Assembly: GCF_900564145.1 (NCBI RefSeq)
Contig: NZ_UOOB01000001.1
Span: 186,001 to 250,000, forward strand
DNA from: Comamonas sp. lk
GTDB lineage: Bacteria > Pseudomonadota > Gammaproteobacteria > Burkholderiales > Burkholderiaceae_C
Direction of reading: 5' to 3'
DNA length: 64,000 nucleotides
In this document: positions 40,786-45,323 of the stretch, in pieces
How positions within the stretch are numbered: the first letter of the stretch is position 1
Layout: the number at the start of each line of letters is the position of its first letter
Program-made: the position numbers and the translations under genes
The notes under the pieces: model-generated
Told to the model about the DNA's origin: nothing
Database searches by the model: none
What the model saw: the letters and a program-made list of their open reading frames with translations, nothing else

Positions 40786-43728
40786 TCAGCTCACATGCTT
40801 GCCGACGATGCCGGCGAGTTCGAACATGCTGACCTGATCCTTGCCGAACACGGGCTTGAGCTTGGCATCGGCGTTGATGGCGCGCTTGTCCTTGGCGTCC
40901 TGCAAGCCGTTGGCCTTGATGTAGTCCCACAGCTTCTTGATTACTTCGGGGCGCGATGTCGCCTCGCCGCCGATCACCGCAGCCAGCTCGGCACTGGGCT
41001 TGAGCGTGGCGCTTACGGTGCGGGGCTTTTTGACGGCTGGAGTCTTGGCAGCCGTCTTGCTCGCCGCCTTGGTGGTTTTTGCAGCCGCTTTTTTGGCTGC
41101 AGCGCCCGTCTTGCTTGCGCCAGCAGCTGCAATCTTGGTAGCAGCAGCACCGGCGGTCTTGCGAGCCGGGTACTTGCTTTCGCGCTGCTCGAACTCGAAG
41201 TTAACCTTGCCCGCAGCCGCATCCCAGACCAGGAAGGCCTTGAAGTTGCGGCGGGTGCGGTTGGAGACGAACTTCTCCAGCAGATCGGTCTTGCCGGTGG
41301 AGAGCAGCTTGATCATCTGCTCGCGCTCTATGGGCTGCTGCAAAATGATCTGGCCGCTCTTGAAGTCGCAGCTCGGTGTGGGCTGCTCCTGCGTAGGCAC
41401 GGCCTTGCCGCAGACATAGTTGGCGCCATGCTCAAACACGGACGAGCCGCACTTGGGGCATGGGCCCAGAGACTGCTGACCGGAGAAGTCCACGATTTCG
41501 CCGGACTCTTCTTCCTTGTCGTCGCCAAAGTCGAACTCGAACTTATAGTTGCCGTTCTCCTCGTCGCGAACGATGGTCACTTCGGCCGTGAACGGCCAGC
41601 CGGCCTTGGAGCGGAAGCCTTCCAGCGGGCCGATGCGGCGGTCGCGCAGCAAGGCCTCGGCCTCAGCGGTTTCAAAGGTGCGGCCGGCAGGCGATTTGGT
41701 GAACGAGAAGCCGCAGCCTTCGCTGGAGCCATTGGCACCCGTGCAAGCGTAGCGACGGTAGTTTTCCTTGACCACGCCGCCGCAGTTGGGACATGGCGTT
41801 TGCAGCGTGGCGTAGTCACCGGGAATGGTGTCGCGGTCGTATTCCTTGGCTTTCTTGACCAGCTTTTCGGTCATGGCCTGAATCTGCTGCATAAAGGCTT
41901 CGCGCGAGAGCTGGCCTTTTTCCATTTGCGAGAGCTTGAACTCCCACTCACCGGTCAGATCGGCGCGGCACAGCTCCTCAACCTGCAGGCCGCGCAGCAG
42001 CGTCATCAGCTGAAAGGCCTTGGCCGTGGGAATCAGCTCGCGGCCTTCGCGCAACATGTATTTCTCGGTCAGCAAACCTTCGATGATGGCCGCGCGCGTG
42101 GCAGGCGTGCCCAGGCCTTTTTCCTGCATGGCTTCGCGCAGCTCTTCGTCGTCGATCTGCTTGCCGGCGCTTTCCATGGCGCCTAGCAGCGTGGCTTCGG
42201 AGTAGCGTGCGGGCGGCTTGGTTTTCAGGCCCTTCACATCGGCATGGTCGGTGCGCGGCTGCTCGCCGGGCTTCACCGCGACCAGAGGCTGGCCCTTGTC
42301 GCCTTCCTTGGCGTCTTCCACCTCGTTGGCGGCTTCCTTGCCGTAAATCGCCAGCCAGCCCGGTTTGACCAGCACCTTGCCTTCGGTCTTGAAGCTGTAT
42401 TGATCCACCTTGCTGATGCGGGTGGTGACCTGGTACTCAGCGCTGGGGAAGAACACGGCCATGAAGCGGCGCACGACCAGGTCGTACAGCTTTTGCTCGG
42501 CCTCGGACAGGCCCGATGGCGCCTGCAGCGTGGGGATGATGGCAAAGTGATCCGACACCTTGCTGTTGTCGAAAATACGCTTGCTCGGGCGAATGTAGTT
42601 ATCGTTGATGGCCTGCTGGGCAAACGGCGCCAGATGGCGCATGCCGCTGGTGGCCAGCATGTCGAAAGTCTGCTTGGCCACGGGCAGGTAATCCTCGGGC
42701 AGGGCGCGAGAATCGGTACGCGGATAGGTCAGCGCCTTGTGGCGTTCGTACAGGCTTTGGGCCAGGGACAGCGTGGTCTTGGCCGAGAAACCGAACTTGC
42801 CGTTGGCCTCGCGCTGCAGGCTGGTCAGATCGAACAGCAGGGGCGAGGCTTGCGTGGTGGGCTTGCTCTCTTCCGTCACCGTGGCGGGCTTGCCCTTGAC
42901 GGCGGCGGCAATGGCTTCGGCCTGGGCCTTGTTCCACAGACGGTCGGCCCGGGCCTCGGGGTCTTCGCTCTTCCTCCACTGCGTGTCAAACCACTTGCCC
43001 AGGTACTGGCCGGCTTGGGCGTCGAACGTGCCGTGCACTTCCCAGTAATCACGGACGATGAATTTGCGAATCTTTTCTTCGCGCTCCACCACCAGCGACA
43101 ACGTGGGTGTCTGCACCCGGCCCACCGTGGTCAGGAAGAAGCCGCCGTCACGCGAGTTGAAGGCCGTCATGGCACGCGTGCCGTTGATGCCCACCAGCCA
43201 GTCGGCCTCGGAGCGGCTGCGCGCGGCACTGGCCAGGCCTTGCATCTGCGCGTCGCTGCGCAGATTGTTGAAGCCGTCACGGATGGCTTGCGGCGTCATG
43301 GACTGCAGCCACAGGCGTTTGACGGGCTTGCCCAGACCGCCCTTGGCGCCGCCTGCGTATTGCTCGATCAAACGAAAGATCAATTCCCCTTCGCGGCCCG
43401 CGTCACAGGCGTTGATGAGTTCGGTCACATCCTTGCGCTTGGCCTGCTTGACCACGGCGTTCAGACGCGTCTTGGTCTTGTCCACGGGCTTCAAGTCAAA
43501 GCGCGGGGGAATCACCGGCAGGTTGGCAAAGCTCCATTTGCCACGCTTGACGTCGAATTCCTCGGGCGCCTGAATCTCCACCAGATGGCCGACCGCACTG
43601 GTCACCACATAGCTGTCCGATTCAAAGTAGTCATCGTGTTTCTCGAACTTGCCTGCCACAGGGGTCAGTGCACGGACGATGTCCTGTGCAACAGAAGGCT
43701 TTTCTGCAATCACCAGGGTTTTAGTCAT
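40786..43728 (-). CDS. topB: DNA topoisomerase III with Lys/Ala tail and SWIB domain
   Basis: 980 residues. The N-terminal Toprim domain starts MTKTLVIAEKPSVAQDI and includes NACDAGREGELIFR. The catalytic Tyr is in LTYPRTDSRALP near residue 335. Two zinc-ribbon-like modules follow (CPNCGGVV..., CPKCGSSVFEH...). Residues ~852-908 (41005-41175) are a Lys/Ala/Thr tail resembling histone H1 or bacterial HctA-like tails (KKAAAKTTKAASKTAAK). Residues ~909-980 (40789-41004) are a SWIB/MDM2-like domain (AELAAVIGGEATSRPEVIKK, SMFELAGIVGKHV). The enzyme relaxes and decatenates DNA by single-strand passage. SWIB fusions to topoisomerases are known from chlamydiae and Burkholderiales. It is divergent from a SET-domain gene. 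Confidence 0.95.
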   Translation of the reverse strand: MTKTLVIAEKPSVAQDIVRALTPVAGKFEKHDDYFESDSYVVTSAVGHLVEIQAPEEFDVKRGKWSFANLPVIPPRFDLKPVDKTKTRLNAVVKQAKRKDVTELINACDAGREGELIFRLIEQYAGGAKGGLGKPVKRLWLQSMTPQAIRDGFNNLRSDAQMQGLASAARSRSEADWLVGINGTRAMTAFNSRDGGFFLTTVGRVQTPTLSLVVEREEKIRKFIVRDYWEVHGTFDAQAGQYLGKWFDTQWRKSEDPEARADRLWNKAQAEAIAAAVKGKPATVTEESKPTTQASPLLFDLTSLQREANGKFGFSAKTTLSLAQSLYERHKALTYPRTDSRALPEDYLPVAKQTFDMLATSGMRHLAPFAQQAINDNYIRPSKRIFDNSKVSDHFAIIPTLQAPSGLSEAEQKLYDLVVRRFMAVFFPSAEYQVTTRISKVDQYSFKTEGKVLVKPGWLAIYGKEAANEVEDAKEGDKGQPLVAVKPGEQPRTDHADVKGLKTKPPARYSEATLLGAMESAGKQIDDEELREAMQEKGLGTPATRAAIIEGLLTEKYMLREGRELIPTAKAFQLMTLLRGLQVEELCRADLTGEWEFKLSQMEKGQLSREAFMQQIQAMTEKLVKKAKEYDRDTIPGDYATLQTPCPNCGGVVKENYRRYACTGANGSSEGCGFSFTKSPAGRTFETAEAEALLRDRRIGPLEGFRSKAGWPFTAEVTIVRDEENGNYKFEFDFGDDKEEESGEIVDFSGQQSLGPCPKCGSSVFEHGANYVCGKAVPTQEQPTPSCDFKSGQIILQQPIEREQMIKLLSTGKTDLLEKFVSNRTRRNFKAFLVWDAAAGKVNFEFEQRESKYPARKTAGAAATKIAAAGASKTGAAAKKAAAKTTKAASKTAAKTPAVKKPRTVSATLKPSAELAAVIGGEATSRPEVIKKLWDYIKANGLQDAKDKRAINADAKLKPVFGKDQVSMFELAGIVGKHVS

Positions 43729-43796
43729 TGTTTGTTCTCGTCGTCTTTAACCGCCTGCGCTCCGGTGTGGCGCTCAGGCTCATACAATCCGCTTCT

Positions 43797-43827
43797 CACG
43801 CGCGCGTACGCGCACATGTGTGCATAT
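43797..43827. promoter_or_regulatory. 31-base alternating purine-pyrimidine tract
   Basis: From 43797 every base alternates pyrimidine/purine: CACGCGCGCGTACGCGCACA then TGTGTGCATAT. Such tracts adopt Z-DNA readily under negative supercoiling. It lies between the divergent topB and SET genes, ending 20 bp before the SET start. Confidence 0.6.
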
Positions 43828-43846
43828 TCAAAGTATCAGAGAAATC

Positions 43847-44350
43847 ATGCCCCGCACATCCCTGGCCCCTTCTGGGGGCCGTCGCATCCAGACTCGACGC
43901 TCCGGCGTGCATGGCAAAGGCGTTTTCGCCGTGCAGGATATTGCCGAGGGCGAGACGATTATTGAGTACGTGGGTGAAGTGATTGGCTGGCAGGAGGCAC
44001 AGGATCGCCACCCGCACGACCCCAGCCAGCCCAACCACACGTTTTATTTCCATGTGGACGAAGACCATGTGATCGACGCCACGCACCAGGGAAATTCCTC
44101 GCGCTGGATCAATCACAGCTGCGGACCCAATTGCTATACCGACGAGCAAGACGGCCGCATCTTCATCGTGGCGCTGCGCAATATCGCAGCCGGCGAAGAG
44201 CTGAACTACGACTACGGCCTGATGGTGGAAGAGCGCTACACGCCCAAGCTCAAGGCCGAATATGTCTGCTGGTGCGGAGCATCCAACTGCCGGGGCACCA
44301 TGCTCGCGCCCAAGCGCGGCTGGCGCCCGCCCATGCCTGGGGATCAATAG
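43847..44350 (+). CDS. SET-domain protein lysine methyltransferase
   Basis: 167 residues from the ATG at 43847. A compact SET domain fills the protein: RRSGVHGKGVFAVQDIAEGE, then RWINHSCGPNC (the NHSC motif of the SAM/lysine site) and AAGEELNYDYG (ELxYDY). A post-SET zinc cluster CWCGASNCRG follows. These features match eukaryotic-type protein-lysine methyltransferases; related bacterial proteins exist in chlamydiae and Burkholderiales. The substrate is unknown. The divergent neighbour encodes a protein with a Lys-rich H1-like tail, an obvious candidate. Confidence 0.9.
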   Translation: MPRTSLAPSGGRRIQTRRSGVHGKGVFAVQDIAEGETIIEYVGEVIGWQEAQDRHPHDPSQPNHTFYFHVDEDHVIDATHQGNSSRWINHSCGPNCYTDEQDGRIFIVALRNIAAGEELNYDYGLMVEERYTPKLKAEYVCWCGASNCRGTMLAPKRGWRPPMPGDQ

Positions 44351-44425: not shown

Positions 44426-44489
44426 CTGAACTGGGGCATGCTTGTTTTAGCCGCCTGCGTTGATGCAGGCCACTTTATGGACAACTGAA

Positions 44490-45323
44490 ATGACTCAGCC
44501 CATTCACTGGAATGCCGAAGCCCTGTGGCAGCACATTGCCCCCCAGCTGCCAGGCTTCAGCGTGGAAATTCTGCCCAGCGTGGACTCCAGCAACACCGAA
44601 CTCATGCGCCGTGCGCGCGACGGCCAGACCGATCCCGTTCTCTTGATTGCAGAGCAGCAGACGGCCGGTCGAGGCCGCCTGGGCCGCCAATGGGTTAGCG
44701 GCGTGGGCGATTCGCTGATGTTCTCTCTGGGCCTGCCCCTGACGCCCAGGGACTGGTCTGGCCTGTCTCTGGCCGTTGGCCTGAGCGTGGCCGAGAGCCT
44801 GCAGCCCCAGCTGCCGGCCGCGGGCAGCAGCATTCCCAGAATCGGCATCAAATGGCCCAATGATTTGTGGCTGGAAGGCGACCGCAAGCTGGCCGGCATC
44901 CTCATCGAAACGGCCAGCTTTGTGGGCAGCCATCAGCACGATGTGCACGCACCGCGCTATGTGGTGATCGGCATAGGCATCAATATCCGCCCCCGACCCG
45001 GCGACGGCATGCGCACCACGCCGGCCTGCCTGCAGGAGTTCGATGCCGCGCTGGATGCGCCCACGGCCCTGGCCTGCATCTTGCCCAATCTGGTGGCCCA
45101 GGTGCAAAGCTTTGCCCAGAGCGGTTTCGAGCCCCTGCTGTCGCGCTTTGCCCAGCGCGATCTGCTGGCCGGACGCGAAGTGGTGCTCAGCGACGGCAGC
45201 ACCGGTCTGGCCCAGGGCGTGGCTGCCGATGGCGGCTTTCTGGTACGCACCGCCAGCGGCGTACAGGCGGTGACCAGCTCCGAGATCAGCGTGCGCCCGG
45301 CCAGCAGCCCGCTGCAGGCCTGA
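44490..45323 (+). CDS. birA: Biotin--[acetyl-CoA-carboxylase] ligase BirA
   Basis: 277 residues from the ATG at 44490. The catalytic domain shows EQQTAGRGRLGRQWVS (biotinyl-AMP loop, GRGRxGRxW), IGIKWPNDLWL, KLAGILIET and GIGINI. A C-terminal SH3-like part ends GVQAVTSSEISVR. There is no N-terminal helix-turn-helix, so it is a catalytic-only form that cannot repress the biotin operon. It attaches biotin to the carboxylase BCCP. It overlaps or abuts the SPOR gene by 3 bp; coaX, often between the two in related genomes, is absent. Confidence 0.93.
   Translation: MTQPIHWNAEALWQHIAPQLPGFSVEILPSVDSSNTELMRRARDGQTDPVLLIAEQQTAGRGRLGRQWVSGVGDSLMFSLGLPLTPRDWSGLSLAVGLSVAESLQPQLPAAGSSIPRIGIKWPNDLWLEGDRKLAGILIETASFVGSHQHDVHAPRYVVIGIGINIRPRPGDGMRTTPACLQEFDAALDAPTALACILPNLVAQVQSFAQSGFEPLLSRFAQRDLLAGREVVLSDGSTGLAQGVAADGGFLVRTASGVQAVTSSEISVRPASSPLQA

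What the first reader, a model, noticed from the sequence alone, without database searches (positions are those of the whole stretch)
40786..44350. SET methyltransferase head-to-head with a topoisomerase III bearing an H1-like tail and SWIB domain
Two genes with eukaryote-like chromatin modules are divergent neighbours. TopB residues ~852-908 are a Lys/Ala/Thr tail like histone H1 (over a dozen lysines), followed by SWIB. The SET protein has a full active site (NHSC, ELNYDY) and a post-SET zinc cluster, so it can plausibly methylate lysines. I infer that the tail is a substrate, giving methyl control of topoisomerase DNA binding. Chlamydial SET and SWIB proteins provide a precedent for each part, not for the pair.
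Basis: partly seen in the sequence, partly recalled or inferred. Interest (0 to 1): 0.75.

Follow-up and report, generated by a model that had tools for sequence, protein, structure and literature searches.

The report
SET methyltransferase paired with topoisomerase III
A bacterial enzyme resembling the ones that methylate histones in our cells sits beside a DNA-untangling enzyme in almost every related genus tested, but the lysine-rich tail proposed as its target comes and goes independently of it, so its true target is still open.

Summary
In detail: an intact SET methyltransferase gene lies head-to-head with a topoisomerase III gene whose product ends in a Lys/Ala tail and a SWIB domain. 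The pair is no local accident: SET is head-to-head with topB in 110 of the 111 family loci where SET was found and upstream DNA was readable. SET is about as conserved as TopB. But the inferred mechanism (tail = SET substrate) is not supported by co-variation. Tail lysine content is the same with SET (121 tails, median 9) and without (29, median 8), and four genomes of one genus with SET directly beside topB have 0-1 tail lysines. birA belongs to the same conserved block. SET lies behind gyrB in Polynucleobacter and near neither gene in Burkholderia, Cupriavidus and Ralstonia. Across the order SET co-occurs with SWIB more strongly than with topB (odds ratios 26 and 8), uncorrected for phylogeny. 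Best reading: SET is a vertically inherited house-keeping lysine methyltransferase, probably acting on DNA-associated proteins; the TopB tail is at most one substrate. The gene families are known; paper searches mostly failed, so I cannot say whether the linkage is published.

The parts
40786..43728 (-). topB: DNA topoisomerase III with C-terminal Lys/Ala tail and SWIB domain, 980 aa
   Evidence: Pfam and NCBIfam NF011313 (PRK14724) 2073 bits over residues 1-980, cut-off 1088
41005..41175 (-). Lys/Ala/Thr tail, residues 852-908 (12 K, 21 A, 0 D/E)
40792..41004 (-). SWIB domain, residues 909-979
   Evidence: PF02201 5e-26; coordinates
43729..43846 (.). intergenic region between the two divergent genes (118 bp if SET starts at the ATG, 91 bp if at the GTG); no sigma-70-like match found
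43847..44350 (+). SET-domain protein, putative lysine methyltransferase (alternative GTG start 43820)
   Evidence: PF00856 2.4e-26; closest solved structures are KMT2A
44460..45323 (+). birA-like biotin protein ligase, the third member of the conserved topB/SET/birA block
   Evidence: Pfam BPL_LplA_LipB and BPL_C; next to SET in 109 of 110 linked family loci

Best explanation
The locus is a conserved block (topB <- -> SET -> birA) of one family of its order (shown). SET keeps its catalytic motifs and is under strong constraint (shown); I infer that it is a vertically inherited protein-lysine methyltransferase with a house-keeping role inside the bacterium. Its most likely substrates are lysine-rich DNA-associated proteins, of which SWIB proteins with Lys/Ala tails are the best candidates (inferred). 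TopB is a type IA topoisomerase III whose tail is found with or without SET (shown) and probably contacts DNA (inferred), and whose SWIB was gained or lost by fusion in part of the family (inferred). The TopB tail may be methylated too, but it is not the feature for which SET is kept (inferred).
For: SET is in 112 of 120 family genomes; in 112 SET proteins from family loci the NHxC, EL-x-YDY and CxCG...CRGT positions are kept at 90% or more. Median identity to the window protein is 70% for SET, 73% for TopB and 48% for the neighbouring birA. SET and TopB distances correlate over 102 genomes (Spearman 0.52, maximum of 300 permutations 0.15). SET is head-to-head with topB in 110 of 119 family loci read, 109 of them with birA next. 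Tail Lys does not depend on SET. SET and SWIB co-occur in the order: SWIB is in 35 of 40 SET+ genomes and 23 of 110 SET-. Many free SWIB proteins carry the same Lys/Ala stretch before SWIB.
Against: Linkage kept in 110 loci, and adjacency in a second arrangement (gyrB-SET-><-topB), is also what a functional SET-topoisomerase tie would give. The SWIB/SET co-occurrence is not corrected for phylogeny or genome size. All 8 SET-less family genomes still have SWIB, and 6 of the 7 of them whose free SWIB protein I read keep its Lys/Ala stretch, so SWIB does not depend on SET either. Five SET+ genomes of the order have no SWIB, and in the class sample 51 of 183 genomes outside the family have SET and none has SWIB above cut-off. 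No substrate was measured.
Confidence: 0.55

Rival explanations
1. One reading: SET methylates the TopB Lys/Ala tail and so tunes topoisomerase DNA binding; the pair is an enzyme-substrate module.
For: Near-universal head-to-head linkage; lysine-rich tail present; adjacency recurs tail-to-tail in four genomes of one genus of another family; a review says cpnSET methylates the H1-like Hc1 of Chlamydophila pneumoniae (PMC3980110, passages).
Against: Tail Lys equal with and without SET (p 0.61 and 0.67); the four tail-to-tail cases have 0-1 Lys; tails of SWIB-less family TopBs have a median length of 17 residues although SET is kept; birA equally linked.
Confidence: 0.15
2. SET is tied to DNA topology or replication genes generally: it acts on gyrase/topoisomerase or on an origin-region protein, hence the gyrB-SET, SET-topB and gyrB-SET-topB arrangements.
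For: gyrB directly before SET in 16 of 80 named loci, mostly with dnaA-dnaN before it, with a 1-2 base gap in two genomes; gyrB, 33 bases, SET-><-topB in G124; topB<->SET in the window's family.
Against: gyrB and topB are themselves neighbours in SET-bearing genomes whose SET lies on another contig (for example G131, G165, G208, G210, G250), so one ancestral location near the origin could explain both; 42 of 80 named loci have SET near none of these genes in the DNA held.
Confidence: 0.15
3. SET is a secreted effector that methylates host histones, as described for B. thailandensis BtSET.
For: Two reviews list BtSET as a secreted H3K4 methyltransferase (PMC3980110 as type III, PMC12914800 as T6SS; passages). 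It may belong to the same family; not tested.
Against: Present in 112 of 120 family genomes and kept in small-genome Polynucleobacter-type genomes in the dnaA-gyrB run; the LegAS4/AnkI model scores 49 bits against a 550 cut-off. Secretion was not tested.
Confidence: 0.1

Closest known systems
TopB of NCBIfam NF011313 / PRK14724
   Same: Match over residues 1-980, 2073 bits against a cut-off of 1088
   Different: No difference seen; the topoisomerase is a member. The model's description does not mention SWIB or the tail.
Bacterial SET proteins treated as histone methyltransferases (BtSET, LegAS4, cpnSET/NUE, from reviews)
   Same: SET domain; lysine-rich candidate substrates
   Different: No LegAS4/AnkI model match above cut-off; head-to-head with topB; present in nearly every genus sampled of the family; substrate unknown
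Chlamydial SET / H1-like protein pair (cpnSET methylates Hc1, per review PMC3980110)
   Same: SET enzyme in a bacterium with Lys-rich DNA-associated proteins
   Different: Hc1 (PF07432) found in only 2 of 150 order genomes; here the Lys-rich candidates are SWIB proteins and TopB
Topoisomerase I/SWI fusion (NCBIfam NF004966 / PRK06319)
   Same: Topoisomerase fused to a SWI-type domain
   Different: 183.5 bits here against an 868 cut-off, so not a member

Membership tests
DNA topoisomerase III, PRK14724 type | Full-length curated model above cut-off | tested here: met
   2073 vs 1088 bits
DNA topoisomerase III, PRK14724 type | Toprim plus type IA catalytic domain | tested here: met
   PF01751, PF01131
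SWIB/MDM2 domain | PF02201 above cut-off | tested here: met
   90.6 vs 25 bits
SET-domain lysine methyltransferase | PF00856 above cut-off with NHxC and ELxYDY | tested here: met
   92.6 vs 22.4 bits; motifs at residues 89 and 118 of the 167-aa form
SET-domain lysine methyltransferase | Lysine methyltransferase activity | not testable with these tools
   needs purified protein
LegAS4/AnkI-type effector | NF043024 equivalog score | tested here: not met
   49 vs 550 bits
Topoisomerase I/SWI fusion PRK06319 | NF004966 score | tested here: not met
   183.5 vs 868 bits
SET enzyme with TopB-tail substrate (proposed module) | Lys tail co-varies with SET | tested here: not met
   121 SET+ vs 29 SET- tails, p 0.61 (count) and 0.67 (fraction); four SET-adjacent tails with 0-1 Lys
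SET enzyme with TopB-tail substrate (proposed module) | Genes linked in relatives | tested here: met
   110 of 119 family loci read; 110 of 111 where SET was found and upstream DNA readable. Not seen in 58 of 80 named loci of the wider order

The most novel reading that the evidence does not exclude
These bacteria have an endogenous 'chromatin methylation' system: SET methylates the Lys/Ala tails of SWIB-type nucleoid proteins, both the free tail-SWIB protein and, where fused, TopB, and so couples DNA compaction to DNA topology. Its gene sits beside topB or gyrB in several arrangements.
Probability: 0.2. Interest if true: 0.8.

Novelty: new variant of a known kind. Interest (0 to 1): 0.5.

Why it matters
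In the review passages I read, bacterial SET proteins appear mainly as effectors that rewrite host chromatin. A SET gene this conserved, and held beside topoisomerase genes in many ordinary bacteria, points to a native role. If its substrate is a Lys/Ala-tailed DNA-associated protein, bacteria would have a histone-like methylation system of their own, testable in a harmless strain with one deletion and mass spectrometry.

Tried and rejected
Rejected: chance tail; local accident of gene order; Hc1-type histone as a general substrate (PF07432 in 2 of 150 order genomes). The promoter scan of 43600-44000 found nothing. The distance comparison with birA failed because of an empty alignment pair, so only topB-SET is reported. 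One search used pasted rows of capped tables: it filed five TopBs with split matches (G023, G044, G064, G070, G079) as SWIB-less and missed the topB-linked SET of G017, which read the DNA, replace it. Literature: seven of eight paper searches and one look-up timed out, so I make no claim that the linkage is unpublished. Not done: structure prediction, deep protein search, phylogenetic trees, phylogeny-corrected tests.

Full report
What is there. topB (43728->40786, -, 980 aa) and a SET gene (43847 or 43820 to 44350, +) are divergent, followed by a birA-like gene (44460-45323, +). TopB has Toprim, the type IA domain, Toprim_Crpt and SWIB at 909-979, and matches NCBIfam NF011313 over residues 1-980. 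The tail 852-908 has 12 Lys, 21 Ala and no acidic residue, beyond any stretch before it and beyond 500 shuffles. The SET protein's best match among solved structures is human KMT2A (MLL1; 4.4e-28), with NHSC, the EL-x-YDY region and the post-SET cysteines aligned. Of 124 SET proteins extracted from loci, 112 from the family, NHxC, EL-x-YDY and CxCG...CRGT positions are kept at 90% or more in the family; the exact string NHSC is in 76 of 124, a strict EL-x-YDY pattern in 100 of 124 and CxCxxxxC in 122 of 124.

Linkage in the window's family. In 120 genomes, one per genus label, drawn evenly from a larger group, SET was found in 112, SWIB in 118 and topB in 117. From the printed best rows, 107 of 110 genomes with both genes have them divergent and under 1.5 kb apart. 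Reading the DNA of the 117 topB loci plus two congeners (G211, G251) gave 119 loci: 110 with SET head-to-head (109 of them with birA next), 4 with birA directly head-to-head and no SET (G024, G026, G038, G073), and 5 others. Of these 5, three have topB within 225 bases of a contig edge (G057, G065, G089), G079 has SET 8 kb away, and G093 has neither gene in 2.6 kb. So linkage holds in 110 of the 111 loci where SET was found and upstream DNA was readable. birA is linked as firmly (113 of the 116 loci not cut at the edge), so linkage alone does not single out SET. G017 has one SET beside topB and another about 2 Mb away beside birA. 'SET-less' means no PF00856 match at E 0.001; two of the eight such genomes are only 55% and 65% complete.

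Outside the family. In 150 genomes of the order, SET is in 40 and this TopB type in 73. In four genomes of one genus label (G124, G173, G218, G258; one event at most) SET and topB are adjacent and convergent. gyrB lies directly before SET in three of them; in G173 the contig begins there. In G124 the gap gyrB-SET is 33 bases and SET-topB 3 bases, with dnaA and dnaN before gyrB by my reading of the ORFs. In two genomes (G150, G194), whose SET is most like Polynucleobacter SETs, the order is dnaA-dnaN-gyrB-SET with a gap of 1-2 bases. A scan of named genomes confirmed 585 relatives and kept the best 80 for that query: 22 have topB<->SET->birA (for example Rubrivivax, Roseateles, Rhodoferax, Aquabacterium, Thiomonas), 16 have gyrB-SET (Polynucleobacter and MAGs), and 42 have none of these genes in the DNA held, up to 6 kb each side and less for some (Cupriavidus, Ralstonia, Burkholderia, Paraburkholderia and others). 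In 40 of the 42 the conserved neighbours are ORFs that look like a sensor kinase and response regulator; those names are my reading, not a profile search. In the class sample of 185 genomes, 4 match this TopB at E 1e-100 and SET is in 53.

The tail test. I read 150 TopB C-termini: 114 from the family, and from the rest of the order 14 of 29 topB+/SET+ genomes (chosen partly for gene proximity) and 22 of 40 topB+/SET- genomes. Median Lys per tail is 9 in 121 SET+ and 8 in 29 SET- (Mann-Whitney p 0.61; Lys fraction p 0.67). Tails with 5 or more Lys: 105 of 121 with SET and 25 of 29 without. The only SET+ tails with 2 or fewer Lys are the four in which SET is convergent with topB (0, 1, 1, 1). 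G026 keeps tail and SWIB with no SET match. The expected dependence fails in both directions. The test ignores phylogeny, and a tail could be methylated without being the selected target.

SWIB. SWIB is fused to TopB in 53 of 112 tails read of G000-G119. Of 30 SWIB loci read, the best-scoring ones and so not a random sample, 28 are not TopB; many begin with a MATAKK-type Lys/Ala stretch before SWIB, like the TopB end, but several (for example L037, L040, L042, L047) do not. In 6 of 7 SET-less genomes among them the stretch is kept. In the order sample SET and SWIB co-occur (35 both, 5 SET only, 23 SWIB only, 87 neither; odds ratio 26), more strongly than SET and topB (33, 7, 40, 70; odds ratio 8), not corrected for phylogeny or genome size. 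Three of the five SET-only genomes are in family f32, and two of these are the only ones of 150 with the H1-like Hc1 domain. Against a SWIB substrate: all 8 SET-less family genomes have SWIB, and in the class sample none of the 183 genomes outside the family has SWIB above cut-off while 51 have SET.

Conservation. Median identity to the window protein across family loci: TopB 73% (n 116), SET 70% (109), birA 48% (112), SPOR-like 36% (78). SET distances follow TopB distances (Spearman 0.52 over 102 genomes, maximum of 300 permutations 0.15).

Literature. In PMC3980110 (passages; section 4) BtSET of B. thailandensis is listed as an H3K4 methyltransferase and type III effector, cpnSET is said to methylate Hc1, and bacterial SET genes are argued to be native. 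PMC12914800 (passages) lists BtSET with T6SS. I did not fetch or compare BtSET itself.

Verdict. The pair is real and strongly conserved in its family. The gene families are known. The specific mechanism proposed is not supported by co-variation, although not excluded.

Noticed in passing
L198:2620-5614, L200:2852-5847, L251-L265, L304: SET gene placed directly behind gyrB, mostly in a dnaA-dnaN-gyrB-SET run, in Polynucleobacter and related genomes.
   Followed up: partly
L191:5028-10526: gyrB, SET and topB packed together, with SET and topB tail-to-tail and a TopB tail with a single lysine.
   Followed up: yes
L031-L051, L053-L059: Free-standing SWIB proteins, many with the same Lys/Ala stretch before SWIB as the TopB end, suggesting a gene fusion.
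   Followed up: partly
L108, L230 (G017): Two SET genes, one beside topB and one beside birA about 2 Mb away.
   Followed up: no
L195:6116-6610, L201:14053-14580, L202:19507-19956: Some SET proteins outside the family carry their own Lys-rich C-terminal tail.
   Followed up: no
L141, L144, L215, L222, L225: The sensor kinase/regulator pair lies on the other side of topB in opposite relative orientation, as if the topB-SET-birA block had inverted as a unit.
   Followed up: no
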